Origin: Liolophura sinensis
Lineage: Eukaryota; Mollusca; Polyplacophora; Chitonida; Chitonidae
Direction of reading: 5' to 3'
DNA length: 64,000 nucleotides
Assembly (NCBI RefSeq): GCF_032854445.1
Contig: NC_088300.1
Span: forward strand, 33,215,608 to 33,279,607
This document shows, in pieces, positions 24,311 through 60,481 of this stretch; position 1 is the stretch's first letter, and each line of letters starts with the position of its first letter. The notes beneath the pieces are model-generated. The model ran no database searches, had not been told where the DNA came from, and saw only the letters and a program-made list of their open reading frames with translations. Made by a program: the position numbers and the translations under genes.

Positions 24311-24466
24311 ATGGAGGGGCCAACAGCGACACGTAAACGAAAGCGGGAAATTCAAGGCGATGACGATTGTTTCCTGAACAGTCCAACCGTTGTTGGATGT
24401 GGTGTCTCAGCGAAAAGAACGCGATGTGCTCTGACTGAAGCAAACAATGCTCGCATGCCCGTGAAA
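24311..24466 (+). CDS. Exon 1 of a plus-strand gene, possible NET1/ARHGEF3-like RhoGEF N-terminus
   Basis: Codes 52 residues from ATG 24311 (GGCAAAATGG, a good start context) to donor GTGAAA|GTAAGT, ending on a whole codon. The protein begins MEGPTATRKRKREIQGDDD and later carries AKRTRC. These two basic clusters, separated by an acidic DDD, recall the two nuclear-localisation clusters of vertebrate NET1 (KRKR-E-DDD … NKRVRP). The surrounding 24200-24480 is richer in CpG than the rest of the window, as expected for a promoter or first exon. The frame is also open upstream to an ATG at 24152, which has a weaker context and is probably 5' UTR. The gene identity is an inference from short motifs; the catalytic DH-PH part is not in the window. 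Confidence 0.6.
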
Positions 24467-24713
24467 GTAAGTATTTTGTGATTGGATCAAGACGGTCTGC
24501 AGGTTTTGGCACAGGAAGTGGTGTTTGAAATTTGAAACCCACAAATCATAAGAGCAAACAGGTGTTGATGTTGTCTTGCAATGGAAGTCATGCGTGCTTT
24601 GTTATGTCAAGCTAGTGATTGTGTGTTTATATTACAAAAATGATGGAAAGTATATACCCTTTTTATTTGCTGTATGGACCCCTCTTCTCTAATTTTTATA
24701 TGGATGCGGAAAT

Positions 24714-24862
24714 TATTTATTTGTTTATTTGCTTGGTGTTTCACACTGTACTCGGGAATATTTCACTTGTACGACGGCGGCCAGCATTATGGTGCGAGGA
24801 GGCCGGGCTGGAGGAAACCTACGACAATCCACAGGTTGCTGACAGACCTTCCCATGGATGTG
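24714..24862 (-). mobile_element. SINE-A, head missing
   Basis: Reversed tail (TTTATTTGTTTATTTGCTTG) through GCGGCCAGCATTATGGTGCG to GCTGACAGACCTTCCCATGG. It lies 250 bp into the first intron of the plus-strand gene. Confidence 0.85.
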
Positions 24863-25456
24863 GAAATTAAAATGTGAACAAATTTGCTGATGCTTGGATG
24901 TTTACATAGGAAAAAATTGAATCAATATGAACGACTCACACTAAGATAGTGTTAACCTGACTTTGTACTTGCACAAATTTCCCGTAAAAACCATAACTTT
25001 TGCATGATTCATCGTAGAACGGGATCAGACCAACTATAGTTCAACAAGTCAAATGATACACTGCTTTTTGCCATTGCAATGTTTGACCACTTAACCACAT
25101 GGGCCACGTGGCACTTTCAAAGGACTAATAAATTGAACATACCTAAATCAATATCCATCCCTGTTGCCAAAAGAACATTGCCTGGCTTCAGTGTGAAACA
25201 TACCGTATTCATTTTACTATATAAATGAAATTATTTGATCATCGGCTGTCACCTTCAAGGCACCATAGTATTGCTCCATTTAAACTTGAACCATTCAAAA
25301 ACCATAACCCAAATCTAAATAGCTTGAGCATAACTGAAAAACGAAAAAGAGTTTACTCGGATCTTCTATCGTGTGTTTTAAAGTTGTGAAATGACATGTA
25401 CAATAACAGTTTCATAAACAGACTGGTACGAAAAGTAACATTCCATATGTGTTATG

Positions 25457-25459
<3 letters not shown>

Positions 25460-25508
<49 letters not shown>
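25460..25508. repeat. (AT)n microsatellite
   Basis: An almost pure TA run of about 45 bp. Confidence 0.95.
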
Positions 25509-25510
<2 letters not shown>

Positions 25511-26446
25511 TTACATCTGTAAGGACACTTTCATGTACATACATATATGTATATTAGAATAGACTCAACATACATGTATTTAAATAGACTGGTCAGACTA
25601 TTTCCGAACACTGACGAAGGATTGCATTCCAGATGACATACTGAACTTTTTGTACTATTATTTTACAGCTAAAAAATACCTAGACTGTATTCAGTAATTT
25701 TTGAACTAGCAATCTCTGAAAAAGAGGGCTCATTTACCAAATTTCAAATGGTGTTTTCTGTAATTCACACAAACAGCAAATGGCCTGTAACCATTTCATG
25801 AGACATATGTATCTCACCTTGGACTAATTGATGGTGTGTGGCGTGCTTGTGATAATAGGAAGGGTTAATTTCTCATTTTGTGAGACACTTCTAGTTTGTC
25901 AACTGAACCTGAATTTACCAAATGTTTGTTACCGGTACTGTAAAATGTATCGCTGTTGTTGCAAATGTATTCAGCAATGTCCTTGTCAGAAAAAAATGAA
26001 TTTCGGATTGGAAGCTTTCCTTTCAACGTAACAACAGGGATAACATCTGGGACAACGTTATTAAACACCAAGGAGGATGGTATATTCAGCATGTTTCAAG
26101 TTGCATGATATGAAAATAAAGTGAGATGATGACTGTTCCAGTGAACAGATAACGCCTACATAACATTGATCTTTGATATTCAATATACATGTTCGATATA
26201 TTAGAGACATGGTATATGTCCCATGTATTATTTCAACTTGTGATACATTTAGTACATTTGCTACACTCAACCAAAATGTGGAGTCATTTGCCTAAATGTC
26301 TGTTTCAGTGTTTATGCAACAGGTATGCAAAACTTTTCCATGGTTTATACTGTAGTAATGTGTTGATGTGCATTTTTATATTCAGGATATTTGGGTCAAT
26401 ACATTGAAAGTCAATGAAACGAGACAACTTAATATGCTTTTTAGAT

Positions 26447-26565
26447 TATTTGTTTATTCCAGTGGTGGTTAACACTGTGTTTAAGAATTTTTCACTGATA
26501 TGATGTTGGCCAGGGCCAGAGATGGAGGAAAAGGAGTGCTCAGAATAGAGCATTGACCACTGTAA
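26447..26565 (-). mobile_element. Decayed SINE-A fragment
   Basis: TTTGTTTATTCCAGTGGTGG, TTAAGAATTTTTCACTGATA and TGTTGGCCAG follow the order of the reversed SINE-A tail and body, with many changes. Confidence 0.55.
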
Positions 26566-26580
26566 TGGAACAATTATACA

Positions 26581-26583
<3 letters not shown>

Positions 26584-26640
<57 letters not shown>
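26584..26640. repeat. (AT)n microsatellite
   Basis: A pure TA run of about 55 bp directly after a decayed SINE fragment. Confidence 0.95.
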
Positions 26641-26642
<2 letters not shown>

Positions 26643-27129
26643 AATCTTCACTTTAATATTGTTACTCCGTGATGTTTTTTAATAACCCTAATATCAGGTT
26701 CGATGTTTACATTAACAACAAGGGAAATAGCTGAACAGTGAGTGCGACTTTTCTGCCACACCAAATGGCAGCTCGAAGCTGTGACTGAGACCAGCTGGTG
26801 TTTGGATCTTTTTGTACATACTCCTCAACAGCGCATGCGTCGCTCCCTACCTTTCGCTAACTTTGGCAGTGATGTATGCTTGTTGTATTCTGTAAGAAAC
26901 TAGAGACCACAAAATCTCCATAGTAACAGACGGCATGGGTGAAATATTGTCCTCGTAATGTTATATCATAGGAAAATGGCTATTTTTCAGTCACTGTCAG
27001 CCATAGTGTATTCATTGGATTTGTATAATTTTTAGATTTCCAGTCATAATCCCGAGTATTTCTGTAGAGCTTACGTGATGTCTTCTTGTACAGATAGGCT
27101 TACTCATGCAGTGGAAATCATAGACCTTT

Positions 27130-28150
27130 ATAATAATAATAATAATACTTTATTTTTTGAGGGAGATCAATTAGTTTACAAAACCAATTTTCCTTGAGTT
27201 CCTCATGCATACACACATTCACACAAAAGGTTATTTACAAGATCTATACAGTATATATAAATTATAGGTGAATCTGATTTGAGATGATCATACTATATAC
27301 AGTGTAGTGAATCATAGACAGTTTCACACTTAATCAGCAGAGGCCTATTTTGACATGATAAACATTTCCATTTCTCTTTGAAAGCACTGACATTCTCTGA
27401 TTTTTAGGTGTAAGTAACATGTATAGGTAGTCAGTTTCCACAATGTCACCCCAGAAAATCTAAAACAAATTTTAATGGCATTGATTCTAGGTTTTGGGGG
27501 GATGAGGTTCATGGAGGACAGGTTGTAGATGGAAGGTTAGTTTGATAGGACAGTTGCAGCGTAGGTAAACCGGCTGAAAAGGTAGCTGGAGTCAAACCTT
27601 TAAGGCATTTAAGCATTAGTACAGCTTTGTGATTCTTTCAAATATTGTCATCCATTTTGGTTTTAAACAGTTCTTGACTTGGTGTCATATATTGTGCATT
27701 TAAAGTAATCCGTGCTGCATGTTTCTGGAGGCATGACAAACATTCAGTGACTCTTTAGAACCATTGCCCCATGTTGTGCAACATTAATTCAGCTATGGTT
27801 GTAAATTCTGTAAGCATTTTAAAACAAAATTGGTGTAAATATTTGTTGATCTCCTGTAACAATGTAAGCTTTGGTGATATAAGTTCATACTGATTCTCAG
27901 TTTATTTCTCTCAGGTCAACGCATCAGCGGTTGTTACACCTAGAAGCTTTGTATACTTAACATTTCAGTTTCTTTTCCATCAATTTCTAAGTGGAGTTTT
28001 CTCTCCAACTTAGCTATGCACTGCCACAAACCAGCTGTCATGCATCTTGTTTTAACAAGGTTGATTGTCATGTCATTACCGTTGCACCGCTGCAGTATTC
28101 TTTTGCTTTTGTTCCCTAGTGCTCGTCTCTACACTTTCTAATGCTTGGGC
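27130..28150 (-). mobile_element. Decayed LINE fragment: C-terminal reverse transcriptase and 3' tail
   Basis: On the minus strand, interrupted by stops and frameshifts, one can read KYTKLLGVT (27932-27958) and, downstream, QKHAARITLNAQYMTPSQEL (about 27675-27735). Weaker matches follow to the HKAVLM-KCL and SGVTLW segments that end many Jockey/CR1-type LINE polymerases. The minus-strand 3' end is an AATAAAG plus (TAT)n tail (plus strand TAATAATAATAATAC at 27131), typical of such elements. The fragment is 5' truncated near 28150-28200, in the first intron of the plus-strand gene, antisense to it. It codes nothing intact. Confidence 0.75.
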
Positions 28151-29271
28151 TGATGTTGATATTGTTTTCTCCCTATGCTTCAGCAGGGGGTGGCCATTTT
28201 GTTTTCAGCCATCATGATAAACTGTCATGGCAGCTGCATGATTTGGGACCCATCCATGGCTGATCAGAACCAAACGTCAGAGTAATCTCGGGACTATATG
28301 CTTCATTACTTAAATGCACTATATTTTGTTCTCCTATGCTATACTGGTACTGGTAGTGCATTTAGTTCAGTTAAAAATTTGACCTCGGCGTTTTATTCAA
28401 TTGAGCTATAGTTCATGTAGTAATCGAGAAGGTGTTCAAACCTAATGGTGTGCAATTGGAAGCAATTGTGACATAATGTACATGTAGGTCACATTACCAC
28501 CATCCCAACAGGTGATAATGTAGATAAATGCGGCATCATTAGCGTACTTTATGTATTCGAGATTGCCCACATCCACATACTTTACTAGCCTGGCTAGCGG
28601 AAGACGAAGTGAAAAGTAACATGGGAAGGGTATTTTGAAATGAACGACAGTGGATAATATTTTGTGAACTGTGCATTACAATATCCTGAAATTATAGTAT
28701 CTTATATGATACCAAAATAGTGTGCACAGATTATTTGAAGTGTGGCCTTCAAGAAATATAGTTTTGGTTTTATTTTGTTGTGAAATGAAGTTTGGTAATA
28801 AATTCCATGTTGTTCAGAAAACACTTTCATGTTTGTGCATGCATCAGTATTTAAGGCAAATAAAATGGCAAATTGTTGTCCTTGATCTCGAATAATGGAT
28901 AATATGCTCTTTTGTAATGTATGGTCACTGTCCTGTTGTATTTATCAGCTTTTCATTTTCAAATGGAAAGAAAAATAAACAGGTCTAGAAGTTGAATGCA
29001 GTTTTTAAATTTACAATTAATAAAAGTCATGTTATTTTTCTGACTTAGTCCATGGACACTTCTGTTTCTCCCGCTGATGAACCTCAACCAGTGAAAAATT
29101 ATTGGGTTTTTCATCAGACGCCAATGAAATAAGGAACTAAATAAATGAAAGAAAAAGAGAAATGAGACACCCCCCCCCCCCCCAAAAATGCTAGTCCTCC
29201 TTCACAACCATGCATATAATGTCGTGCATGCTCATTTATTTGTTTCTTTGTTTTTTTTTTGTTTGTTTTAG

Positions 29272-29502
29272 AATTCTACTTCATTTTTTACAACCCCTTC
29301 AAAGAGGTGGAAACAGACTATCAGAAAGAAGGTCTCACACAGCATCCGTCGTCAGAAACTGAAGAATCTGACTGACTACTCACTTCCCGTGAATCCTTCG
29401 GGTAACGTCCTGCGAGCCTTGAGTGAGAACAGTCTTAAGAATCTAAGTGAGGGTGGAAAAGACAGCATGGGGTCTCCACAGAGGAGCGTCCCTGATCTGA
29501 AG
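29272..29502 (+). CDS. Exon 2 of the plus-strand gene, basic region
   Basis: Acceptor TTTGTTTGTTTTAG after a pyrimidine-rich tract, donor CTGAAG|GTAAGA, 231 bp, whole codons at both ends, and in phase with exon 1. It reads NSTSFFTTPSKRWKQTIRKK, then VSHSIRRQKLKNLTDYSLPV, and ends SPQRSVPDLK. The piece TPSKRWKQTI resembles TPLKRFSQTL of ARHGEF3 and RRFGQTI of NET1, which follow the nuclear-localisation region in those proteins. There is no initiator ATG near the exon start, which fits an internal exon. The next exon in this frame was not found up to 64000. Exon status is well supported; family assignment is tentative. Confidence 0.75.
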
Positions 29503-31064
29503 GTAAGAGCTATTCCCCTTTCCTGTTCACCTGCAGCCACATTAACTATTCAGGACCATCAATAAAAATATGAGGGGTTTTTTTTTGTTTTATATCTGAC
29601 ATTCCTGAGAAGGGTCCTACTCTTAAGATTTAATATTGATCTTTGAAACAAGCATCTTTTCTTCCAATGTTAATTTCTTTAAATCGCCTTGTCATTAAGG
29701 CCACACCAATTTAAATTGTTGTTTTAAGGGAAGAATAAATCTTATTTTTTAGGTAATAGAATAAACATTGAATAATCATTTAAGTCGAAGGTAATGTAGA
29801 CTATTGCAGCATTTTTTCCAGTTTGAGACGTATTTACTTGATCTGAAAGCCTTGAAAAACATGCATATCCTAAAATCGTCAAGATTGAACAAAATGGAAA
29901 GGTAGATTTTCAGTTTTAGTTTTAATCCATTTTAGGATTTTTTGATGTCTGCATGCCCATAAAACACGAGATAAAATCGTCTCACCTAATCAGAATGATA
30001 ATGCAAAAAAAAAAGCAGCATAATTCATTATGATAATGGATGTCTCTGATATTTTTTTGGCAAAATTGGACGCATAGTATGCTTAAGATACAGCTGAGTA
30101 TACTGGATCCCTGAATAAACTTGTGACCTGTAAACTTTTAGACCAGTATTCTTCGTCAAAACTCTACATGTACATTAATTTCTTCTACATTTGTCTTGAT
30201 TGCAAATAGCAATCATCATTAGTTTGTTTGTCATTTAGCATAAAGAGAATTCTGATGATACTGCATACACCTATCCAGACTGACAGTTTTCTCTTATCGC
30301 TTTATACAAGTTATACTCTATGTACCGTTACCAAAATATAAAATAATGATCAAGGGAGGTAACAAACTCAAATTTGTAAGTATGTGAGAGGGACAGTTTA
30401 AGTGAGCAGTAACCTCCCTTGATTCGCTTGGTTACAGGTGTCCTGTATTGAAAAAATTGAATGTTTTGATTGTAAACTCAACCTGAATTTTCTACATTGC
30501 GAACTGAAATGATGCCCTGAATGGAAGAAATTAATGTCAACATCAAGCTTTAAATTGTTAAACTATCATTGTTAAACTATTGTCCATTTACTTTCATTGT
30601 TTTTGCCGCATTCAGTCATTTTCCAGAACTAAAAAAGTTCTGGATAATAATATTGCCTAAACTTGTTAATATGTTGAGGGTATTTTTAGATGATTAACGA
30701 AAACAAATGTACATGTAGAAGAAATCAGTGGCATAAGCTAATTAGTTATAACTCTTTAATGATACGATGTCTTATCAGAATCAGAGCACAAATCACACAC
30801 ATGTATGAATCTCTCACGTCATGACATGGCAGAAATAGTGATTATGGTGCTTGCTTTTACATGATAAAAGAACACAAGGTGCAGATCCAAGTTTGGCCTT
30901 GGACAGGGATTTTGAGGCTTACCCCCATTCTCGCTGTTTGAAACTTTGGTGTCAGTAAGCGGTCAAAGACCCTCAGATGGACAGTCCTACTGTTCGCTAG
31001 TACAGTGGTTTCACAGATATGCATGCTGTACGTGTATCTAAATGTTACCCATGAAAAAAGTTTG

Positions 31065-31203
31065 TCAGTAACAATCCAGAGGTTGGTGGTTTTTCACCCG
31101 TCAGGCATCTGTCCTTTTTCCACCCATAAAACTTACTGCCAACATATAACATATGTGTATAAGTGACAAAATTTTGATGCAGCAATCAAATAAATAAATT
31201 TAA
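31065..31203 (+). mobile_element. Decayed SINE-A 3' half
   Basis: A GGTTTTTCACCCGTC … CCTTTTTCCACCCATAA … AAGTGACAAA … CAATCAAATAAATAAAT series matches the order of the SINE-A 3' half at low identity. Confidence 0.5.
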
Positions 31204-32466
31204 ATGTGTCAGATTTTCAGCTTTGTGGCAAAATGTTGCATGTCAAAACCTCATTAGTTGATACATGTGTTCAGAGCGCTGTATGTGGATATTGAGTGGA
31301 ACTGTATGACACTTGTCGCTCACAATTACAGGTACATGTACATGTCATCAGTACTTCATGACATGTTCTTCTGGGGTCACTTTATCAAGACATCAATTAC
31401 AGTGTACTGCGAGCAGGAAGGAAATTGTGCTCACGAAGAGTAGGACATTTATGTATTGTGGAAATTGCTTTTGATAAGGCTGTATGTATAGTGGAATTAA
31501 ATTATCATGGTTAGGCAATAAACCATAGTTGAATTCCCTGTATATGTTTTTAAAAAATGTCATTAATAAGATGGAAAGTTTGGTTGTACCATTATTCATC
31601 AGAGCTCTTCCTTTTAGAAGCATCAAACACACCCTAACCCTATAATCCCAGCAGGGCATTGACGTGAATCATGCAGTGCATGGCCCCAAAACTATAATTT
31701 TGTATAATTTACAAAGGCTTGGTGGTGTAACATTATTAAGGAGGCTAGTGAAACACTTTCTAGGGTGGAAAGGTATACATGTACTGTAACACATAGGCAG
31801 ATCTGATTATAGGGTCCTAAAATCAAATGTCAATGTAGCCACACCCCTTTCCTCCTCCACTCCCATTGCTGCACTGTCTGGTATTTTACATGAATGGCCA
31901 AGGATCCCTAGTTTTTAATTCAGGAAAGGAAGTACATGTTTGTATATCATTGTTATGAACACCTGCTTGGAATAGTGAAAAGCTGGTAGATCAGCTTCTC
32001 AGGATACAGTGCTTCAGAAGTTTAAGATGTATCTGTACAGGTCTAGCCTGCTCAGACTTCCTATAACCAAAACAAGTTTGATCGTTTCTTAAATCTTCTT
32101 CTGGTAATGTAGATATATGTGGAAAATCTTTAGTTTCTAATTCTTCCTGATCTGATAATACATGTGTACACTTATGATGAAGTTACACGGCTGTTTTTCA
32201 CCCTGTGAATGTTTGTTTATTTATCAGATTAGCAGTCAACCCTATTGCATCCCATAGGAAATTTATTCTGCTATTTACATGAACATTACATGTACCTCTT
32301 ACAGTGATAGACCAGGCAGAAGGGATCTTCTATGTCATTCTGTGACACAAAACATCACTTTCTTGGTTGATGACAGAACTATTGAAATAAAAGTAAATAA
32401 AAAAAAAGTCTATTGTTCCCCAAAAAAGCTAATGCATGTACTTGTAACATGATTACTGCAGCCTCA

Positions 32467-32664
32467 GGGACCTTCATGGCTGAGGACAATTAAAGTCCTG
32501 GCTGGCCAATGAGGTTGTATGTTTAGCAGTTTTGTCCTGTTTTCTGGTGAGGGCCGTGGATCACTGGGGGCACTCAAGTTAACTCTGCCTGTATTCTGAA
32601 CGCCATCATCCAGGTGCAATGTTCCTGAGTGTGGCATTATACACCAGTCAAATAAATAAGTAAA
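32467..32664 (+). mobile_element. SINE-A, internally deleted and diverged
   Basis: Head GGGACCTTCATGGCTGAGG, then a deletion, then a recognisable 3' half ending GAGTGTGGCATTATACACCA and GTCAAATAAATAAG. Confidence 0.7.
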
Positions 32665-32715
32665 CTTTCTGTTGCATCATCCTATAAAATGTAGGTAAAA
32701 CTTCTCATAGTTCAG

Positions 32716-33272
32716 TCCTGTGAAGGTGCCATGTGCAAATGATAATCTGTGAAGATGCCATGTGTAAATGATAATCTGTGAAGATGCCCTATGTAAGTGA
32801 TAATCTGTGAAGATGCCATGTGTAAATGATAATCTGTGAAGATGCCATGTGTAAATGATAATCTGTGAAGATGCCATGTGTAAGTGATAATCTGTGAAGA
32901 TGCCATGTGTAAGTGATAATCTGTGAAGATGCCATGTGTAAGTGATAATCTGTGAAGATGCCATGTGTAAATGATAATCTGTGAAGATGCCATGTAAATG
33001 ATAGCCTGTGAAGATGCCATGTGTAAATGATAGTCTGTGAAGATGCCATGTGTAAATGATAATCTGTGAAGATGCCATGTGTAAGTGATAATCTGTGAAG
33101 ATGCCATGTGTAAATGATAATCTGTGAAGATGCCATGTGTAAATGATAATCTGTGAAGATGCCATGTGTAAATGATAATCCGTAAATGATCATCTGTGAT
33201 GTGTAAATGATAATCTGTGAAGATGCCATGTGTAAATGATAATCTGTGAAGATGCCATGTATAAATGATAAT
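32716..33272. repeat. 29-bp minisatellite
   Basis: About 19 copies of GTGTAAATGATAATCTGTGA followed by AGATGCCAT, with a few shortened units near 32990 and 33180. Long minus-strand frames with a repeating HGIFTDYHLHMASSQIIIYT peptide are a by-product of the period (3 x 29 = 87 bases = 29 codons). There are no unique spacers, so it is not a CRISPR array. Confidence 0.93.
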
Positions 33273-35261
33273 GATAAATGATGGGATCTCCATAAGTGCA
33301 TTCATGTACAGAAGCTTGTGGACTACAGTCCATGTAATCCTGTGATTTTGTTTTAATGTGAGGAAATAAAATACTGTAATGGATACCGATGCAGAAAAAA
33401 AAAATGATACTTGTAGTTACAGCATTTCTGGGAATATGAAATGTGTACATGTAAAACTAGAATTGAGTATAAGTTCTCTTGGGGTCAAGTGGTTGTCTGG
33501 CTCTTGTCAGATTAAGATGCATGCCCTATGTGACATCTGTGACAGCCTCATATCTTAAGCTGATGAAGGACAGCTGAAACTACCTCAGGCACCTTCAGCA
33601 CTCAGCTGATTCACCATGCTCTTAGATAGGCTGTACACCATGCATACTACTTAAGCCTGTAGGTGTACATGTGCATGGACTATGTGTACATGTAACAAGA
33701 GCTATCCACCATACCACTGCCAGTGGGACATCAGGAGTATGTCTTAAACTGCTGTTGATATTCAATCCCATCTGTCACCACACATTCTTTCTTTGGCACC
33801 AGTCTGCAAAACAGTCTTGAAATTGGGAAACAAGATGTCTGGTCGCCATGGCAACCTGTTGAGGAAATTACTAGGATGTGTCAAATTACCACTGTTTACT
33901 GAATCTGCATGTATGTCTCCTCATTGGAAATGCCCTTCCTGTACCCTTGGCCCCCAATCTTTCAACAGCCTGCCTGAGGGTCCCCTAAGCTCTAGATTAG
34001 GAAGAGATAGCTGTAGATAAGAAAATGTGCCATGTGGTAGTGTTTACAGGTCTTACTTGATCAAGGGGTAGGCTGAGGACCAATGACATTTAGCAGAACC
34101 ACTGTTTGAATTTGAAAGTGGTTATTGTACTTGTACATTGGCTCAGTGCTCACATGTACATGTATACATCATGTGTGTACACTATTGTAGATTTACAACA
34201 TTGCCAAAATGCACACATACATCAGAACTGAAATTGAAATTTTCACAACATTGATGTAACCAGTAGATGCCCATGTACTTCAGAAGTAAGAAACAGCAGA
34301 ATGAAATAAAAACCTCTATGTGGGCAATATTGTATTCATTTAAGGGCATCCTACTCACAAAAATACTTGTACTCAAGAAAATGAAACTTTGCACCCTAGT
34401 GGTACAATGTACATCCAAGATCAGTGGGTGTGGCAGTGAGCTACATGTACATATAGAGTGATATTTGGAGCAGATTACAAATGTATATGAATTTGATTAG
34501 GAAACTAATCAGTACTAAATATATATTCATGATTGCCATTTTTTTTTTTTGACAGTGGAAAGGCTTAAGTTATTTGGTGTTAATTCTAACTTCTTTGTTC
34601 AGTTTCAGTTATGTGTGGTGGGACTGATCAAGGAGTACATGCCCTCATTGCCTACTTAAATAAAGGTTTCATTCGTTCATCAGTGTATAGTTCGTAGGGG
34701 AGTAAAGGCCAGCTAGGAAATTGATAGTGGTTATATCTGCTAATCTTTATACTGAAACATTCACCCTTCTTTTGTTATAAGCTGGTATGACCAGTATAAA
34801 TTATCACGCACCTGCGACAGTGTTAAGAGCATATAGATTTTCGGTGAGAAAAACAGAGAAGTTTGTGTTTTTGATCAAGGTGACATGTATCAATATTTAG
34901 TAGGTTAATTCCCTGTACACTTGTAAGGAAGTGTGAGGATCTATATGTGTACATGATGTACGTGAACATGTGTTCATTTGCATTGTCATACCATGGTATG
35001 TGTACCTGTGCTGTGAAAGCTTTGATCACCAAATATAAAGTACCAGTGGTAATCACTATGGAAGTTAAAAAGTGGTTGGAGGTCAGTATAATGCCTATTA
35101 GTTGTGGTTAGTGTTACAGAGGTTAGAAATTGGTTAGTGAAAAAGTTGGAAATTGGTTTCAGGCACTCTTCAGTGAGTCTTAAGTTCTTTGGGTGAGATA
35201 CATGCATGTAAAGGGTATCAGTTGAGATAAATTTGCTAAACACTGGTATGATACATGAATG

Positions 35262-40112: not shown

Positions 40113-40334
40113 GATCCGAGAGCCTCTCACCAATGCGGTCCTATGAGTTCAAGTCCAGTTCATGCTGACTTCCTCTCAGGCCGTATGTTGGAAGGTTTGC
40201 CAGCTACCTGTGTATGATCATGGGTTTCCCCCGCCCTCTGCATGGTTTCCTCCCACCATAATGCTGGTCGCCGATGTATACATGAAATATTCTTGAGTAT
40301 GGCGTAAAGCACCAATCAAATTAATAAATAAATA
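40113..40334 (+). mobile_element. SINE-A, 5' truncated
   Basis: Starts GAGAGCCTCTCACCAATGCG and continues through the B box (ATGAGTTCAAGTCCAG) to CACCAATCAAATTAATAAAT. It is well preserved apart from the missing A-box head. Confidence 0.88.
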
Positions 40335-46644: not shown

Positions 46645-46905
46645 GTGAATTTTGATTTGAAAGTAAGAGAGAATGAATGAATGAATGAATGATTATGGTT
46701 TGATGCCACATCAGCAATATTTCAGCCATATCGTGGTGAGAGAGAATTAATGTAATGTCCGCCTGTGTGTGTGTGTGTGTATATATGGGCGAACAGCAAT
46801 TGTCAAAGGAGACAAGCGACAGAGCATGGTGTACCTGTACAATTAGCAGAAGCTGATTCATGTATAAATTTTGATTTGAAAGTAAGAGAGAATGAATGTA
46901 ATGTC

Positions 46906-46945
<40 letters not shown>

Positions 46946-47467
46946 GGGGAACAGCAATTGTCAAAGGAGACAAGCGACAGAGCATGGTGTACCGGTACAA
47001 TTAGCAGAAGCTAATTCATTTATTTTGATTTGAAAGTAAGAGAGAATGAATGTTATGTCCACCTGTGTGTGTGTGTGTATGGGGGAACAGCAATTGTCAA
47101 AGGAGACAAGCGACAGAGCATGGTGTACCTGTACAATTAGCAGAAGCTAATTCATTTATTTTGATTTGAAAGTAAGAGAGAATGAATGTTATGTCCACCT
47201 GTGTGTGTGTGTGTATGGGCGAACAGCAATTGTCAAAGGAGACAAGCGACAGAGCATGGTGTACCTGTACAATTAGCAGAAGCTGATTCATTTATTTTGA
47301 TTTGAAAGTAAGAGAGAATGAATGTAATGTCCACATGTGTGTGTGTGTGTATGGGCGAACAGCAATTGTCAAAGGAGACAAGCGACAGAGCATGGTGTAC
47401 CTGTACAATTAGCAGAAGCTGATTCATTTATTTTGGTTTGAAAGTAAGAGAGAATGAATGTAATGTC

Positions 47468-47517
<50 letters not shown>

Positions 47518-47914
47518 GGGGAACAGCAATTGTCAAAGGAGACAAGCGACAGAGCATTGTGTACCTGTACAATTAGCAGAAGCTGATTCATTTATTTTGA
47601 TTTGAAAGTAAGAGAGAATGAATGTAATGTCCACATGTGTGTGTGTGTGTATGGGGGAACAGCAATTGTCAAAGGAGACAAGCGACAGAGCATGGTGTAC
47701 CTGTACAATTAGCAGAAGCTGATTCATTTATTTTGATTTGAAAGTAAGAGAGAATGAATGTAATGTCCACCTGTGTGTGTGTGTGTGTGTGTGTGTATGG
47801 GGGAACAGCAATTGTCAAAGGAGACAAGCGACAGAGCATGGTGTACCTGTACAATTAGCAGAAGCTGATTCATTTATTTTGATTTGAAAGTAAGAGAGAA
47901 TGAATGTAATGTCC

Positions 47915-47955
<41 letters not shown>

Positions 47956-48070
47956 GGGGAACAGCAATTGTCAAAGGAGACAAGCGACAGAGCATGGTGT
48001 ACCTGTACAATTAGCAGAAGCTGATTCATTTATTTTGATTTGAAAGTAAGAGAGAATGAATGTAATGTCC

Positions 48071-48111
<41 letters not shown>

Positions 48112-48659
48112 GGGGAACAGCAATTGTCAAAGGAGACAAGCGACAGAGCATTGTGTACCTGTACAATTAGCAGAAGCTGATTCATTTATTTTGATTTGAA
48201 AGTAAGAGAGAATGAATGTAATGTCCACATGTGTGTGTGTGTGTGTGTGTGTGTATGGGGGAACAGCAATTGTCAAAGGAGACAAGCGACAGAGCATGGT
48301 GTACCTGTACAATTAGCAGAAGCTGATTCATTTATTTTGATTTGAAAGTAAGAGAGAATGAATGTAATGTCCACATGTGTGTGTGTGTGTGTGTGTGTGT
48401 ATGGGGGAACAGCAATTGTCAAAGGAGACAAGCGACAGAGCATGGTGTACCTGTACAATTAGCAGAAGCTGATTCATTTATTTTGATTTGAAAGTAAGAG
48501 AGAATGAATGTAATGTCCACATGTGTGTGTGTGTGTATGGGGGAACAGCAATTGTCAAAGGAGACGAGCGACAGAGCATGGTGTACCTGTACAATTAGCA
48601 GAAGCTGATTCATGTATAAATTTTGATTTGAAAGTAAGAGAGAATGAATGTAATGTCCA

Positions 48660-48703
<44 letters not shown>

Positions 48704-48790
48704 GGGGAACAGCAATTGTCAAAGGAGACAAGCGACAGAGCATTGTGTACCTGTACAGTTAGCGGAAGCTGATTCATTTATAAAGGCTGA
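46645..48790. repeat. About 14-unit tandem array with embedded (GT)n
   Basis: Each unit of 135-165 bp has a constant part (GAACAGCAATTGTCAAAGGA, GACAAGCGACAGAGCATGG, TGTACCTGTACAATTAGCAG, AAGCTGATTCATTTATTTTG, AAGTAAGAGAGAATGAATGT) and a (GT)n tract of about 12 to 46 bp. The constant parts differ by only a few bases, while (GT)n length differs in nearly every unit. The first unit carries a short insertion; the last degenerates near 48785. Confidence 0.93.
46679..46738 (-). mobile_element. Short insertion inside the first unit of the 46.6-48.8 kb array
   Basis: Unit 1 of the array is interrupted by AATGAATGAATGATTATGGT … TGATGCCACATCAGCAATAT … CCATATCGTGGT. GCCAC-TCAGCAATATT-CAGCCATAT is a string I recognise from a mollusc repeat family. 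It is flanked by near-identical copies of the unit sequence GAGAGAATGAATG and GAGAGAATTAATG, as a target-site duplication would give. Confidence 0.6.
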
Positions 48791-50980: not shown

Positions 50981-51068
50981 GTTTTCAGATTTCGTTGATC
51001 GTATGTACTGTCGTTTTCAGATTTCGTTGATCGTATGTACTGTCATTTTCAGATTTCATTAATCAAAG
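50981..51068. repeat. 32-bp tandem repeat, 2.7 units
   Basis: GTTTTCAGATTTCGTTGATC followed by GTATGTACTGTC, repeated with few changes. Confidence 0.85.
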
Positions 51069-52321
51069 GTAGACACTATAGGCACCTGCACAAGTACATG
51101 TACTTGGGCTTGTGATATATATCCATCTGGACTAGTACATTCTTTCGCATGTCTTTTTTTTTGGTATTTCTGTTGGTTTGCTTTTCATGGCAAAGTGGCT
51201 GATATAAGTTTACATATTTACCAAATTGGAAAGGCCCTTTTTTAATGTGAAGTTTCAGGAACACATAATTCCCTATCAAAAGTACAGGTATAAAGTTGTG
51301 TTTTGCCATTACACAGAAAGTGTGATTCATACTTGTAAAAATGAATTAACAAGGCCACATAAAACAGTGTACATGTATGTTATCATAGTATTTTATCTTT
51401 AGTTAGCATTTTGTTGCAAAATGCCATACTGGTACTGTGGTTAGATACCTAAAGGAAAATATCAAAACATACGTGTGACTACCATGTGAAAAGAAAGGAT
51501 GGATAGTATTAATGGTTCTTGGTATGTCTGTGAACTGGTTAAAGCCACATGCAATTGTGTTGTGGTACATTATGTACACGAAAACCTCACCCAGATGCAA
51601 CAAGAAGGCTTCTTGCGTTGCATTGTGGCTGTGTGATGATTTGTCACAGTCATTTCAGTGAGAAAAAGATCAAATACTGATATCTCACATAGCTTCGTCT
51701 CAACTGTGTGAAAGGTTATCAGAAACTGACACCCCTGGGTGTGAATTGCATTCTAGTCATTTTGCCTGTTAATAAAGTTTGTTAGCATCTGGGGATAATA
51801 CTTAAGCTATAATTCCTTTTCTTTAGCTTTTTGCTGAGAATATTTAGCTGGAGTTATAGTGTATGCACTTTAGCTGTATTCATCATCTTGAGGGGCCAGG
51901 CACTATGCAAAGAATTTTAAGTGAGACACCAGATTTTGCACCCATATGGCAAACCTGTGAAAGCCCCACATGGCAGTAGGGATATATTGGTTAACCATCC
52001 TTTCTGTGATATACTGTTATTTCTTTCCAACACAAACACAGCTGGTGCAAAATCCCTATTTAGTCTTCTGTCATTTGAGTTTACTGTCCAGTGTAAACTG
52101 GGCCTCCAAGGTGTTACAGAACGAGTTCAATATGGAGGGAATAGATTAAGATATGAGACCATACGTTATAGGAGATCCATTGAGAATCAGTAAGGAGGTC
52201 AGAGGGAGTGTTGACACAGGCTGTAATGTTATATACTCAAAGAGAGAGGCTGTAATGTTATATAGTAAAGAAAGAGGGGCGTTTGCTTTAATCTCAAGCC
52301 TTTGTTAACTCACTTGTTATA

Positions 52322-52545
52322 GTTCGTTTTCTCAAGGCTTCTGATGATGATAAACTTTGCAAATATTATCGAGACAGGAATGGAGGTTTTGGAGGATATA
52401 ATTGCTTACTAGTATATTTTGTTATATCTGGCTTCAGCTGTAGTCCATTTTCTAAAGGCTTGTTATGATGATAAACCTTCCAAATAATTTCAAGACAGGA
52501 ATAAGGTTTTTGGAGAATACAGTTACTTACATATATTTTTTGAAG
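52322..52545. repeat. Diverged tandem duplication of about 115 bp
   Basis: Copy 1 (about 52322-52430) and copy 2 (about 52440-52545) share AGTTCGTTTTCTCAAGGCTT / AGTCCATTTTCTAAAGGCTT, GATGATAAAC-TT-CAAATA, GACAGGAAT and TTGGAG-ATA. A shorter 30-bp duplication (GGCTGTAATGTTATATA) lies just upstream at 52220-52268. Confidence 0.75.
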
Positions 52546-53716
52546 AGAGATTTATGCCATTTCAGTATTTTGGAAAGCCTGAGTGGATAAGATAAAGGAC
52601 TAGCTGTTTTTCTGGACCACTCCTGGCCTAGTTTGATATTAGCTGGCTGTGCAGATTGTTTCTATCAGTAAGCCACAGGCAACTTAATTGCTCATTGCTT
52701 GCCCCACACTGGTGATTGCAGTTAAATGATTCATACACCTGTGTGTGGGTATTATTAGAGCCACATAGTAGCCTCTAATGTTACAGCAGTTTGAGGTTAT
52801 ATCAAGACTTTCTTTTTTCTTTTTTTTGTGAATTAAGCTATGGGCTAAAAAGTGAATGTCAATCAGATATTATGTGATAGTACCTATTGTGCAGACGTAT
52901 CTCTGGTGATAGTCCCATGTGTACATGTAGATAATGAGAGATAGGCACACACAGCTTGGGACACACAGCCTATCCTGAAAGCAAGCTAAGGTACAAAGCC
53001 AGGCACAGGACAAAATCAATTCCTGCTTGTACATGTAAAACCTCTCTTTGTCTCAGGCCTGCCATGGGCCGGTAGGAAGTAAATCAGGCACATTTTTGCC
53101 CTCTTACCTGGTCTGTTTTTGTGAGCTGGGCTACATGTAGGAAGCTATCTAGAAAGGGGATCTAGGGGATAGGAAATACTGAGGATGCCTCCCCATTGAG
53201 AGCATTGGCTACTACACCTGTGTCCCATAGATCAGATGGGGGGAAAACTGCCCTTGCTTTACTGTATAGGCCAATAGCCTGGCCTCAACAGCTGGTAAGC
53301 TGAGCATCACAGCCAGTAGACAGACTTGGCAGCTTTTTAATCACCTTGGACTCCTTTGCTTATACCCCTTGTGGATTGGCCTAAATGAGAAGGGAGTCTA
53401 CTACTACATGTATATGTACTACTGGAGGATACAGCTTTACCCATTTCTTACTGGGCGCTCTTGTATTCTGCTGGGTCCAGAAATTCAGGGGCTCTGCATT
53501 TGTTCCGAGAATTCTTCTTCTTTAAACATCCTGATTGTGTTAAAGAGTACAGGCCAGTGATAACAGTCAGACCTTATACAGCACAGGTTGGACAGGACTT
53601 CATACATGTAAACTACATGTAGGAACTGGACCAGCTTTTTCCACAGAGAAACAGTCCAGGAGGTCTTCCCCAAGAGAAATCAAGCTGCAGAAATAATTTG
53701 GTGGAAGTGGGCTGTT

Positions 53717-53746
53717 TTTCTCTCTCTCTCTCTCTCTCTTTCTCAG
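53717..53746 (+). promoter_or_regulatory. (TC)n tract ending in a consensus splice acceptor
   Basis: TTTTTCTCTCTCTCTCTC… ends TTTCTCAG at 53746. This is an ideal polypyrimidine tract plus AG, 222 bp before the ATG of candidate exon A. It may be a 3' splice site for a 5'-UTR exon, or a pyrimidine-rich transcription start element. Confidence 0.45.
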
Positions 53747-53960
53747 GGAAGTTAATTTGATATGTTGTATGGTGCATCTAGGATAGCTCGGCTACATGTG
53801 CATGTAACAACAAGTGAAGCAGGCGTAACTTTGCGCTTTTTCCCATGCCAGGCTGCCTGTGTGCGGGATTCTGGAAAGGGTTACAGTACAAGGGTTCTTA
53901 GCCCATTCACCTATATTTCCCTTACACTGTCAGACCTTAGCCCTTGTGTCTGGTGACCAC

Positions 53961-53966
53961 ATGTAA
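53961..53966 (+). promoter_or_regulatory. Start-stop upstream ORF (ATGTAA)
   Basis: A minimal ATG-stop lies two bases before the ATG at 53969. Such elements can hold back ribosomes from the next start. The pentamer ATGTA is very common in this DNA, so chance is a fair explanation. Confidence 0.35.
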
Positions 53967-53968
53967 AC

Positions 53969-54058
53969 ATGGCGGTGGATTTAGAGACCAAATCTACCCC
54001 AATCATTCTGGAGGACATGAGTGTGTTTTACTACCGTCAGCTGGCTACTAGTCTACAG
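53969..54058 (+). CDS. Candidate alternative first coding exon A
   Basis: ATG 53969 opens MAVDLETKSTPIILEDMSVF and then YYRQLATSLQ, 30 codons, ending CTACAG|GTAGGT on a whole codon. An in-frame stop (TGA at 53954-53956) just upstream argues that translation starts here. A pyrimidine tract with (TC)n and a consensus acceptor lies at 53717-53746, so the full exon could be 53747-54058 with a short 5' UTR; it could equally be a transcription start. The donor phase equals that of exons 1 and 2 of the plus-strand gene, so it could replace them. It might also belong to a separate gene. Confidence 0.55.
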
Positions 54059-54755
54059 GTAGGTTCACCACAGTGTACATGTGTAGTTAACAATCACTTA
54101 CTGTATTGTAATGTGGAGGCTCATGCCAAGTAATACTAATGGTATGATTCATGTACTGTTTGGTGAGGATAAGAATGGGGTAGGGTTTGCAAGGTTTATC
54201 TTGATGTTTAGTGACTTAAGAAAATTTTGTGTCATTTGATTTGTGTGTCGCTTCTTCCTCCTAACAGAACAGATGTTGTATAGATACTGCCCTCTTCCAT
54301 GTAATTTACACTCTGCATGTCTAGTACTATACATGGATTTGGTGTAATCATAGAACCATTGGTACCACATGTATTTGCATATCAGTTTCTTCTGGTTCGT
54401 GCACTGTATTCAGGATATTAACACTATGATTTAGTGGTCGAATCTGGTTATTACAGATATATAGGTGATGATGCATAAACATTTCCCAGTCTGGAGAGGA
54501 ATGAATCCTTTATAAACTTGTGCAACAGATTAAATTTTTTCTGTGGGTTATGCCTGTTCAAGAGGGGAAAATGTAAGAATATTATTGTTTACATATTAAT
54601 TTGAAAACCTTATGGTGGATGGAACAATTTTCAGCTAGAAAACATTCTCTACTCGTAGATATAATAATGTATGTATTATACGTGTGGTAATTTCAGTCCT
54701 AACATTGACTACATGGCCTGTGAAAACATACATGTATATGTACCCTGGATTTGTG

Positions 54756-54808
<53 letters not shown>
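54756..54808. repeat. (AT)n microsatellite
   Basis: A TA run of about 50 bp, 700 bp downstream of candidate exon A. Confidence 0.95.
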
Positions 54809-54811
<3 letters not shown>

Positions 54812-57800
54812 GTACATAAGTCATATACAGGTACCTGCTAAACGGCATAGATATGATGTGGAAAAAGACGAAGGTGTTTCTGACGTCTAGGCAGCTAAAA
54901 TTATCCAGTAGAAATAATTAATAGGTTTGAGGATCAGAGTTCATCTGGATTGAAACTTGTACATGTACATGGTTGTTTTCAGGTACAGTTACGTGTATGC
55001 ATGCTGGTACTTCTGCATCAGATCGTACATTGTATCCTACACACACTTGTACACACATTTGTAGAAGTGCTGGACCAGTCCAGTATTGTCATGCAAATTC
55101 ATATATGCGTGGACAGGCAAGGTGTTTCTATTTTATAGTTGACCATATCACACTTACATTGTTAGACATATCATTGTTTTGATTAGGAAATAATTGGAGG
55201 TAAGTATGTTAGATTTTACATTTACCCTCACTGTACACAAATTGTTGGATCTCTAAGCAAAAAATTGCAAAATGTATTGTAATTGGAAACAGTTCATCGT
55301 TATAAACTTGGATGAGAAAAATATAAATGTCCAGTATTTTAACTGATTTTTGGCTGCAGATTACAAACATAAACTTTTAACTTGTACATGCAGTTGGTTA
55401 ATAGATTTGCAAAACCTTGACAGAAGCACTACAGGTGTACATGTTATAAAAGAGATCTGAAGGTGTTCAGAAACACACACGCACACACACAGTGATAACA
55501 AGTGAATTTAAGGTCTGAGTGATTTCCCCTTATCTGACATGTTTGTCAATCATTGATGTACATGTATGTGGTTTTATGGGTTAGGTGTTGAAATATACAT
55601 TTTTGTTAACCTGTGGCCTGACACTGAATAATTCATCAGCTTCCTCTCAAAACAAAATAACTCCTACCTGTGTGTGAGGTGAAAGAAAAAGCCTTAAAGA
55701 GATGAATTTATCTATACATGTATACTACTATGTTAATAGTGAGTTATATTTAAGTGAGAAGTTTGTAAAACTGTATGCAAATTATATATTTTGGTTTCTG
55801 ATCTGTAAATCACACACACTATATTAGTGTGGTATGTGAACTTAATTTTACTTTATATGCTCTTTTGTATACAGGTAATACATTTGCTAAAGAAAATTTA
55901 TATTGCCATAAGATTGAATAGACATTCTACACATGAACACATTTGTTCAGGGCATTAGCAAAGGGCTGTTATATGTCGGCAGGTAAAGTGTTTTGTTAAC
56001 TTCATTTTTCTCTGTCTTAATTAGAGAGAATAATGGATGTATATTAACAGTCATTTATTATGTATGGGGAATACATGTTTTTCTGACTTCACCAGAATTT
56101 CATTGTAACCCCAAAAAAAAAAGGGACAAATCCTGTACATGTGCTGATGTTTTCGTCATGTCATATTACAGTGCAACAGATGTCATTATTATTCTATCGT
56201 GGGAAAATCTAGTTCTGTGTGTCCACATATATGTACATGTCCATGTATAAAGGCACACAGGTAACAAAAACACTAATTCTTCAGTGTACAGGAGTAGCGT
56301 TGTAATTTTAACTGATCAGTATACATTTGCATGTGTGTTGTAAAGATGGTTAGAAACAATATTAACATCAAAGGTCACTCAGATTTACTTCTACACATTT
56401 AGGCCTTCAACTTGTGTGTCAAACACATGTACATGCAGGTACTGGGTATGCAATAGCACATAGTATGTTTGTCATGCACATCTTTAATGCATCATCTGTT
56501 TGCATTTTTAAAAAAATAAGTAATATTTTTGATACATTCAGTTTCATGAAATTTTGAACTCCCTGTTGACCATGCTATACTGGGTTAATGGTTTACACAG
56601 TGCTGATAAACTCCCACCACAAAGTTCAGTGTACATGGTTTTTGTGTTGGACATACAGGGCACTGGTGGTTTGTTGAGGCTATTAGTTTCACCCCCAGCA
56701 GGTTTCAATCCCAGCCCTGGTAGCAACAGTAGCCTGTGCCCTCTGATCTGTTTGTTTATGTATGTTTGGCTGACCACAATCCCCATGTGGTGTAGGAGGG
56801 TCAGCTGTGTAGCCACTGACCCCAGGCATGGCTCTACTCTAGTCTGTACTTCATCAGAGATGTGAGGGGTTTTATAGCTAGTGTACATAGCCCAGTTATT
56901 CACATTTTAGAATACATGTACAGGTGCTTGTACATGTACAGTGCAGTAGTTTTCAAAATACCAAAGTACATGTACCTTACATGTAATGTCAGTCTGTAAA
57001 GATATGTACATGCACACAGATGCATGACGTGTAAAGTTTGAATGAAACCTGCAGCCTGGGCACCTCTAGAACATTATCACCAGTAGTGCAGTTTGAAAAT
57101 TGGTCATGATTCAGTTGTATGTATTAATCTGAAAATAAACTGAATTGAAAATTGAAAAGAATGTAAATTTGGATAAACTGGAATTTTTTGGACTCCTGTA
57201 TGATTATTAAAAACTTGTGATTTCTCGGTAATTATTTTCACCCGCGTGTGTTCGTGCATTTCATTGGCATGTACATGTGTGTATTGTCGTTTATGAATAC
57301 AAGTAGTGTCCACTTCTGCTGAGTAAGCATCATTCAGCTGGCCTTTGTGTGTACTATACATGTATTTATCTCATATATATGCAGCAGTGAAGAGGTGATG
57401 TTTCATGTATATGTACACACTAGCTACATACAGATTTCTTTTCAGTGTTAAAAGATTGTGTAGCAGTGACAAATGGGTACAGTTCGTAAGCTAGAATTTG
57501 TTAATCTCCAGCTTTGCCTGGCAATGCAGCTGTTAAAGTTATAGGGTGAAGTCTTGGATATAATTGTTTATTCCAAGAAGGTTGATGGTTACTGAATTCT
57601 AGAATTTGAATCAGGCATTGCCTTATATGTATGTACATACTGTTTACAGGCATAGCTTGTTTAGCGAGTTTGTGTCAGAGCTGACTTTGACACACTTCCA
57701 CATAAGTTACTAAACATTTGTTAGTGTCAGATGTGTATGCTGATAGTGTCTCTACCCACACAGTAATTTACAGCCTTTTCATCAGATCTCTCCAAACCTC

Positions 57801-59124
57801 TGACCTGTAGGTGAGAGTTCAAATCCAGTTGATCTCATTTTAATTCATTCTACCATATAACTTACTTATGAGTGCTGGCCTTTGTAATCTTAGAATACAT
57901 GCACATGTATATATCAGTTTGATCATGATTATTCACGTGTACTCAGGACTTCAAATTGTAAAGACTGCTTTAATAGTTATATGCAGATCACAAAAGAATT
58001 TGTATGGCTTAAAGTTGTGACTTAATTATGATGCAGACTTTCGCATGTAGTTATGAGGTAGGAGTCCATATACATTGGTTCAGGCAATTAACGTGTACGA
58101 TTACGACCTATATATAAGTATGTAGATCAATATGTTATAACCTAATCTCATTGTAAATTGGGACAGAGTCACATGTGCTCCAGATCCAGTGAAATCAGCT
58201 TGGTTTAGAACAATATTTCGCACCATCAAGCATGGGAACATGACATGTACATGTGCATTGACGTATTCCCTCTTTGTAAGATCAAGATTTCACCAAGACT
58301 TGGCTGAAATACTCCAATAATGGTAGCGATGGTAAACCTCATTCATTCATTCCAATATAGATTAGGAAGCTGATCATGGATGTAGATGACATGTGGCTGT
58401 ACATAGATATGTATTTGTGTCTATACGTCATGCTTGATATAACAAGGCTTGATGTGCCATTTTTTGTCTAGAACATATGGCGTTGGTGTGATTGTATGAG
58501 GAAATTGTCTATTTATGCTCACATACAGATACAAAACTGAGCTACCGTACATGTAATTGTAAAGTAAAGCAACTCCAGTGAAGTTCTGCAGCCTTCTGAA
58601 AAGAGAAGCAAGTCATTCAACTTACGTGTATTTAAAACGCCTGTGTTCTTTATCTTCACAAATAGCAGTGCCAGCTATCATTTTTCATGATCACTGGTTA
58701 TGTCATTGAATTTACTCTCGTTGTTATTCATATACACACATGCTAGAGTACATGGCTGTTTTTATGTAAGTTGTAAGATTTGCTTCCCTTTGTAATGGGC
58801 CACAGAGCCCTATTTTCAGTCATTAATCTCTTCACCCAGATGAAGATAAATGTTTGTATTTCTGATATATCTATTTACAAGTCAATTAATTTGTTACATA
58901 AACTAATGAGGCCAGTAGATGAATCTGGGTCGTGAATATAATAGGCTTATTGAGTGTGAACATTTTTGTTTGTCACTTTGTGTAATGTATGCAGAACCAA
59001 GATACATGTAGGTTTAATAATCAGGCTCAGTGCATTTAATCAAGCGGCTTCACTTTTCTTCAGAACCAGCCTGTATTTGTCCAACATCGTTTGTTCAATG
59101 GACAGATGACTCATGTGCGATATA

Positions 59125-59476
59125 AACTTGCGATGTTTGAGTTCTGATTTATAGACTGAACTTGCTATGTGTGAGTTCTGATTTATAGACTGAACTTACA
59201 TTGTGTGAGTCCTGATTTATAGACTGAACTTGCAATGTTTGAGTCCTGGTTTATAGACTGAACTTGCTATGTGTGAGTCCTGATTTATAGACTGATCTTG
59301 TGATGTGTGAGTCCTGATTTATAGACTGAACTTACAATGTTTGAGTTCTGATTTATAGACTGAACTTGCAATGTGTGAGTTCTGATTTATAGACTGAACT
59401 TGCGATGTGTGAGTCCTGATTTATAGACTGAACTTGCAGTGTTTGAGTTCTGATTTATAGACTGAACTTGCCATGC
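59125..59476. repeat. 34-bp minisatellite
   Basis: About ten copies of TGAGTTCTGATTTATAGACT followed by GAACTTGCAATGTG. Confidence 0.92.
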
Positions 59477-60364
59477 ATGAGTTCTAATCATGCTTTTACG
59501 AGCATGCAAGGTTGAACTGTCCAGTTTGCTAAATAATTGGGTCAGTGTAGTGCAGAATGTCCAGCCTTCTCTGGTTGTTACAAGTTCATCCAGGCTCATT
59601 AATATAGTCCTGTTAGTAATTGGTGTCTTGAATGAGAACCTCTGTTTAAAGGCATCATTAGAATATTAATTACTGTCAATGGATCAGCTTGAACCTTGTC
59701 TGTATAATATGGGATCAATGCATGCATTTCAGCATGGGCATGTTGACATGAATGAAAAAGATAATGTGTTGTAATTCTTCAACTGTTTTGCCTTAATTTG
59801 TATACAATTGTGATTGTAGTCTTTTACGGTTTTGGACAGAGGTACAGTTGTAGTCTACTTGGTTAAAGGTTAATCTGTAAACTGTTTCACATCGGTAAAT
59901 TTGAATATTTTAGTTCAAATGTAGATCGAGGAATTATGCTTTTATTACGATCTAAATGCATCATTTTTATTTGCCCATGTTTGCAGAATTAGAGTATTTA
60001 CCACTTATTGATGTTAATAAGACACCTGTAATCACCTCACGACATACATGTACCTGCCCAGATAGTCTGTATGCTAATATTCAGCTAAAATTAGTCGTTT
60101 CCTGATATTTTTGGACTGTCCAGTTTCCAGGGAACAATCTCTACCATTGTAAATGAGGATGTTGTCTTGGGAGGCTGTGAGACAAATTTACATACTTATC
60201 GTATTCACTGTAACATCAGCAGGTGAACATTGTGTGTTATATATCAGATAGCTATGTGGCCATCAGTGGTCAGTGATACATATACAGTATAGGAACTGTT
60301 CTTTAGTGTTGGCTATGGTCACTTCTCTCCACTCGGATGTAGGACTTCACCGAGACCTTACATA

Positions 60365-60481
60365 ATGGGCAATGCTAATGCAGTCTATCTGATCACAGAT
60401 TCTGACACACTAGAGGCTGATGATTTACAATCACGAGAATACTCCAGATCATCTAAGTTCTTGAGGACATTGGACAAAAAG
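60365..60481 (+). CDS. Candidate alternative first coding exon B, possible N-myristoylation signal
   Basis: ATG 60365 opens MGNANAVYLITDSDTLEADD, then LQSREYSRSSKFLRTLDKK, 39 codons, ending AAAAAG|GTAAAG on a whole codon. Gly2, Asn3 and Ala6 suit N-myristoyltransferase, and basic residues near the end could aid membrane binding. The frame upstream of the ATG is open for about 25 codons, so an internal exon is possible, but the only nearby acceptor (TTCTTTAG, about 60303) would need a different phase from the other plus-strand exons. A SINE lies about 200 bp downstream. Confidence 0.55.

What the first reader, a model, noticed from the sequence alone, without database searches (positions are those of the whole stretch)
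24311..60481. Three candidate first coding exons with the same splice phase, giving nuclear-type and myristoyl-type N-termini
Exons 24311-24466 plus 29272-29502, 53969-54058 and 60365-60481 all lie on the plus strand, all but the internal exon begin with an ATG, and all end on a whole codon at a GT donor. They could therefore all splice to one downstream acceptor outside the window. The first form carries KRKR and AKRTR clusters like the nuclear-localisation region of NET1; the last begins MGNANA, a plausible N-myristoylation signal. If right, alternative promoters over 36 kb would switch a RhoGEF-like protein between nucleus and membrane. NET1 and ARHGEF3 are known to have alternative N-termini, and NET1 activity is known to be restrained by nuclear import; the myristoylated form would be new to me.
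Basis: partly seen in the sequence, partly recalled or inferred. Interest (0 to 1): 0.75.

Follow-up and report, generated by a model that had tools for sequence, protein, structure and literature searches.

The report
Alternative starts of a rhotekin gene

Summary
The four exons are at the stated coordinates, each ending on a whole codon at a GT donor. I fetched the genome right of the window to test the predicted shared acceptor. The first strong plus-strand exon there is at window coordinate 73444-73640; it starts on a whole codon, with an acceptor at the 99.9th percentile. The gene is not a RhoGEF: its exons encode HR1, anillin-homology and PH domains, that is rhotekin, a Rho effector. No DH domain was found nearby. 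Exon 53969-54058 resembles an alternative first exon of human RTKN (recalled sequence): 18 residues ending at the junction, 0 of 2000 shuffles as good. That stretch opens the Rho-binding domain, so start choice could alter Rho binding. The 24311 + 29272 form has a basic, NLS-like N-terminus matching neither recalled RTKN start. Exon 60365 (MGNANA) is weakly supported and its myristoylation unproven. No RNA data were available. Layout supported, RhoGEF reading rejected; a new variant of a known kind.

The parts
24311..24466 (+). First coding exon of the long form (52 codons), with RKRKR and KRTR clusters and an RxxLxxxxN (D-box-like) motif at residue 38
   Evidence: frame, donor; codon score above all 3000 null segments, donor 98.9th percentile; basic clusters; CpG o/e 0.91, within the richest stretch of the window; motif
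29272..29502 (+). Second coding exon of the long form (77 codons), basic, phase 0 to phase 0
   Evidence: acceptor 99.3rd and donor 99.8th percentile, codon score above all 1500 null segments
53969..54058 (+). Alternative first coding exon (30 codons), likely counterpart of an alternative first exon of human RTKN (recalled); encodes the start of the Rho-binding domain
   Evidence: score 54, shuffle maximum 37, 0 of 2000; 18-residue match ending at the donor, tblastn E 0.28 in 72 kb; donor 99.8th percentile
60365..60481 (+). Possible third first coding exon (39 codons, MGNANA...); weakly supported; may instead be an internal exon from 60343, or no exon
   Evidence: rank 20, noise level; PROSITE-like myristoylation pattern present; no similarity to the recalled rhotekin starts

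Best explanation
The exons are alternative starts of the single rhotekin gene of this animal. Transcription from a CpG-rich region near 24.3 kb gives a long form (24311 + 29272). A second, CpG-poor start in the following intron gives the conserved short form (53969), and possibly a third start (60365) gives another. All can join in phase to the exon at window coordinate 73444, which opens the HR1 Rho-binding domain, followed by anillin-homology and PH domains; the model ends at 81791. Shown: exon frames, shared phase, the strong acceptor, the domain content, one copy found by genome search, and similarity of the 53969 exon to a recalled human alternative exon. Inferred: that the splices are used, that promoters differ in activity, that start choice swaps the N-terminal part of the Rho-binding domain and so tunes Rho binding or self-inhibition, and that the basic long form enters the nucleus.
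For: Shared exon 73444-73640 in phase 0, acceptor 99.9th percentile of 5787 AGs. No plus-strand exon candidate of score 9.9 (the lowest printed) or more between 60,000 and 73,444; no plus-strand internal exon of score 5 or more between 29,503 and 60,000; terminal-exon candidates in 29,503-64,000 are weak, the best (6.4) in phase 2 and the best in phase 0 at 2.2. Spliced frames are open for all three starts. Pfam: anillin PF08174 E 1e-39, HR1 E 2.3e-5 (below its cut-off), PH E 3.9e-14; the only two PDB hits are anillin, 4xoi and 4xh3. Genome: PF08174 has 3 matches, 2 in this gene and 1 on C9 in an anillin-like gene; the 53969+73444 peptide has 2 matches, both this gene. Exon 53969 against the recalled human RTKN start: 54, shuffle mean 16.7, 0 of 2000. 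Mouse rhotekin residues 7-89 are used as Rho-binding bait (PMC2817642, passages); by the recalled human sequence residue 7 is the first of the 18 matched.
Against: No RNA evidence at all. The 53969 and 60365 starts lie in CpG-poor DNA (o/e 0.25 and 0.24, 32nd and 29th percentile), unlike the 24311 and FBXO41-like starts (0.91, 0.78). 60365 is at noise level in the open scan and resembles none of the recalled starts. The start 24311 is not fixed. The long form resembles neither recalled RTKN start, and scored better against recalled NET1. Without a start-context filter such exons are no commoner than chance. One exon between 75583 and 77520 was not resolved. The human sequences used for comparison, and the human exon junction, are recalled, not fetched; searched blind over 72 kb the 53969 match has only E 0.28.
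Confidence: 0.83

Rival explanations
1. One reading: alternative N-termini of a RhoGEF of the NET1/ARHGEF3 type, switched between nucleus and membrane.
For: The long-form N-terminus scores above most shuffles against recalled long NET1 (3 and 1 of 1000 uniform, 4 of 1000 block shuffles as good) and ARHGEF3 (17 and 9 of 1000 uniform, 3 of 1000 block). NET1 has alternative promoters (PMC4045674, passages).
Against: The downstream exons have HR1, anillin-homology and PH domains. No PF00621 match near the locus; best recalled NET1/ARHGEF3 tblastn E 0.57 over the 136 kb to the right. A and B peptides show no similarity to NET1/ARHGEF3 N-termini (393 to 991 of 1000 shuffles as good).
Confidence: 0.03
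2. The long form (24311 + 29272) belongs to a separate small gene or a transcript unrelated to rhotekin, and rhotekin proper starts at 53969.
For: Neither recalled RTKN start matches it; 24 kb separate 29502 from 53969.
Against: 29502 ends in phase 0 at a strong donor, no good terminal exon follows, and the next strong plus-strand exon takes phase 0.
Confidence: 0.13
3. 60365-60481 is not a first exon: it is an internal exon starting at 60343, or chance.
For: Fair acceptor at 60342 (95th percentile); rank 20 in the open scan; 2 of 37 well-placed open ATGs, itself included, fit the myristoylation pattern.
Against: Strong start context, 117 nt open, phase-0 donor; an internal exon from 60343 needs phase-1 input, which neither 29502 nor 54058 supplies.
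Confidence: 0.55

Closest known systems
Human RTKN (rhotekin) with alternative first exons (sequences recalled)
   Same: Domain order HR1, anillin homology, PH; an alternative start with ILEDxxxxYxRQxAxSL running into the HR1 part at the same codon
   Different: The long basic N-terminus (24311 + 29272) and the MGNANA start match neither recalled RTKN start; the modelled C-terminus ends SSTGT, not the SPV PDZ motif described for mammals (PMC6073136, passages)
Human RTKN2 long and short forms from two transcription starts (PMC13332059, passages)
   Same: Rhotekin-family gene whose start choice is reported to make forms with opposite effects on cell growth and migration
   Different: The passages do not say how the two forms differ in sequence; only the recalled RTKN2 start was compared (24311 exon against it: 65 of 2000 shuffles as good)
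Anillin (PF08174 family; 4xh3, 4xoi)
   Same: Anillin-homology region and PH domain; the recalled human N-terminus has a similar basic, D-box-like motif (24311 exon: 48 of 2000 shuffles as good, weak)
   Different: An anillin-like gene lies separately on C9 of the same genome
NET1 alternative promoters (PMC4045674, passages)
   Same: Promoter choice changes the N-terminus of a Rho-pathway protein
   Different: NET1 is an exchange factor; this gene shows no DH domain

Membership tests
Rhotekin | HR1-type Rho-binding domain near the N-terminus | tested here: met
   HR1 PF02185 E 2.3e-5, 24.7 bits, under the cut-off of 33.1; recalled human RTKN itself scores only 16 bits; 49% identity to recalled RTKN2 over 55 residues of this exon
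Rhotekin | Anillin-homology region followed by a PH domain | tested here: met
   PF08174 E 1e-39 and PF00169 E 3.9e-14, both over cut-off; one exon between the two parts unresolved
Rhotekin | Pro-rich C-terminus with PDZ-binding end (as in mammalian RTKN) | tested here: inconclusive
   The modelled last exon ends SSTGT; other last exons not excluded
Rhotekin | Binds GTP-bound Rho | not testable with these tools
   Needs a pull-down
NET1/ARHGEF3 RhoGEF | DH (RhoGEF) domain | tested here: not met
Anillin | Being the anillin gene of this genome | tested here: not met
   An anillin-like N-terminal exon (44% over 27 residues to recalled human anillin, E 0.002) and a PF08174 match lie on C9
N-myristoylated proteins | Gly2 with permitted residues at 3, 6 and 7 (pattern recalled) | tested here: met
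   weak evidence, 2 of 37 comparable ATGs fit, this one included
N-myristoylated proteins | Actual acylation and membrane binding | not testable with these tools
   Sequence: no Cys; net charge -5 in residues 2-20 and +4 in 21-39

The most novel reading that the evidence does not exclude
One rhotekin gene makes a nuclear, cell-cycle-degraded effector (basic N-terminus with NLS clusters and a D-box-like motif, lacking the first segment of the Rho-binding domain) and a conserved cytoskeletal effector with the full Rho-binding domain, selected by promoter; the short-form exon would be an alternative first exon kept since the common ancestor of this animal and vertebrates.
Probability: 0.2. Interest if true: 0.6.

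Novelty: new variant of a known kind. Interest (0 to 1): 0.38.

Why it matters
If the match of the 53969 exon to the recalled human alternative exon holds, a choice of starts in rhotekin is very old, and the alternative exon covers the start of the domain that is used as bait for active Rho (PMC6073136, passages; PMC2817642, passages). If start choice alters Rho binding or self-inhibition (RBD-PH self-binding is reported in the worm protein; PMC10752531, passages), isoform identity would matter for functional studies of rhotekin. The long basic form would raise the question of a nuclear rhotekin.

Tried and rejected
RhoGEF identity: the N-terminal alignments looked significant, then the downstream exons pointed to rhotekin. 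Shuffle tests on basic N-termini therefore mislead, which also applies to the weak anillin and RTKN2 likenesses of the 24311 exon (48 and 65 of 2000).

DPF1-3_N Pfam hit of the long form (E 0.01, below cut-off) and Uds1 hit of 60365 joined to the shared exon (E 0.0015, below cut-off): taken as chance or coiled-coil hits.

Searches that found nothing: PDB with the long form, 60365 and 53969 peptides (E up to 10) and with 53969 + shared exon (E up to 1); viral contigs and genome contigs with the long form (8 and 36 stretches matched a pattern, none confirmed). Paper searches for rhotekin isoforms or first exons listed 15 of 61 and 10 of 1,665 papers; I saw none on invertebrate alternative starts, which does not show that none is in print. 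An automatic chain of downstream exons chose a wrong second exon; it was replaced by hand from frames and recalled homology. AlphaFold was not run.

Full report
Observation. The exons 24311-24466, 29272-29502, 53969-54058 and 60365-60481 are present as described. All end on a whole codon at GT donors, and all but 29272 begin with ATG. With criteria set afterwards to just include them, they are the only three such ATG exons on the plus strand, all in phase 0; the minus strand has none, and 30 Markov resamples averaged 0.27 with a maximum of 2. Without the start-context filter the counts (9 phase-0 starts on plus, 7 on minus) are no more than chance (mean 6.2, maximum 14). A codon score trained on the neighbouring FBXO41-like gene supports 24311, 29272 and 53969 well and 60365 only modestly (none, none, 0.23% and 2.5% of null segments as good). 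In an open exon scan 53969 was 8th and 60365 20th of 70 printed rows.

What lies downstream. The window is C6:33215608-33279607 of a 609 Mb genome. I fetched about 136 kb to its right. In window coordinates, the best internal plus-strand exon of the scan beyond 60,000 is 73444-73640. It starts on a whole codon, with an acceptor at the 99.9th percentile of 5787 AGs. The exons modelled after it are 74371-74423, 74975-75149, 75424-75583, 77520-77617, 78112-78215, 79532-79681, 80284-80449, 81080-81190 and 81643-81791 with a stop; at least one exon between 75583 and 77520 is unresolved.

Identity. The protein has an HR1 repeat (E 2.3e-5, below the curated cut-off), an anillin-homology region (E 1e-39) and a PH domain (E 3.9e-14). 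Recalled human RTKN and RTKN2 align to these exons in order, the last of them weakly. In the whole genome the anillin-homology family has 3 matches, 2 in this gene and 1 on C9; the C9 locus has an anillin-like N-terminal exon. The gene is therefore the one rhotekin gene found. RhoGEF matches (43 in the genome) include none nearby, and recalled NET1/ARHGEF3 find nothing better than E 1.2 in the window or E 0.57 in the fetched stretch.

The 53969 exon. Its last 18 residues, ILEDMSVFYYRQLATSLQ, align without gaps to ILEDLNMLYIRQMALSLE of a recalled human RTKN start, both ending where the HR1 part begins; searched blind over 72 kb the match has E 0.28. Tested on its own it scores 54 against a shuffle mean of 16.7 and maximum of 37, 0 of 2000; 16 comparisons were made in that call, the other 15 with 48 to 2000 of 2000 shuffles as good. 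By the recalled numbering the block begins at residue 7; residues 7-89 of mouse rhotekin are used as Rho-binding bait (PMC2817642, passages).

The long form. Its start lies in the most CpG-rich stretch of the window (o/e 0.91 around the ATG), and the start of the FBXO41-like gene is also high (0.78, 97th percentile), while 53969 and 60365 lie in CpG-poor DNA (0.25, 0.24). Other CpG-rich windows, for example 11301-12201, are not starts, so this is no proof of a promoter. The form has basic clusters and an RxxLxxxxN motif, which suggest but do not show nuclear import and cell-cycle degradation. It resembles neither recalled RTKN start.

The third form. MGNANA fits a simple myristoylation pattern, but so do 2 of 37 comparable ATGs, itself included. 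It has no cysteine and an acidic first half. The frame is open upstream, with a fair acceptor at 60342. It shows no similarity to the recalled rhotekin and anillin starts (569 to 1758 of 2000 shuffles as good). I give it about 40% as a real first exon.

How it would work. Inferred: start choice decides whether the HR1 domain carries its canonical N-terminal segment (53969), a 129-residue basic extension (24311 + 29272), or another short segment (60365). In worms the Rho-binding region and the PH region of rhotekin are reported to bind each other (PMC10752531, passages), and two starts of human RTKN2 are reported to make forms with opposite effects on cell growth (PMC13332059, passages).

Organism. 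TACATGTA occurs 75 times against 2 expected from base composition, which I recall as typical of marine molluscs; this is a lead only.

Noticed in passing
394-17886, minus strand: An FBXO41-like gene (C2H2 finger PF23165 E 1.5e-11, F-box-like E 1.1e-10) runs head to head with the rhotekin gene; its 3' end is beyond or near the left edge.
   Followed up: partly
L012-L018, window coordinates about 96000-155000, plus strand (right of the window): Exons resembling a RIG-I-like helicase (GSGKT and DECHH motifs; name recalled) occur in two near-identical sets about 24 kb apart and a more divergent third, apparently a tandem array.
   Followed up: no
46739-48781: A tandem repeat array of units of about 136-164 nt with (TG)n blocks in the long intron.
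   Followed up: no
e.g. 3280-3546, 18821-18959, 21467-21641, 21876-22017, 22854-23117, 24712-24808, 40138-40334: Copies of a dispersed short repeat, in both orientations, looking like a SINE.
   Followed up: no
L022, window coordinates about 191325-192454, plus strand (right of the window): Long open frame that looks like an alpha-tubulin (family name recalled).
   Followed up: no
C9:24248627 onward, L030 (anillin locus): A 926-residue open frame that looks like part of a retroelement, upstream of the anillin-like exons.
   Followed up: no
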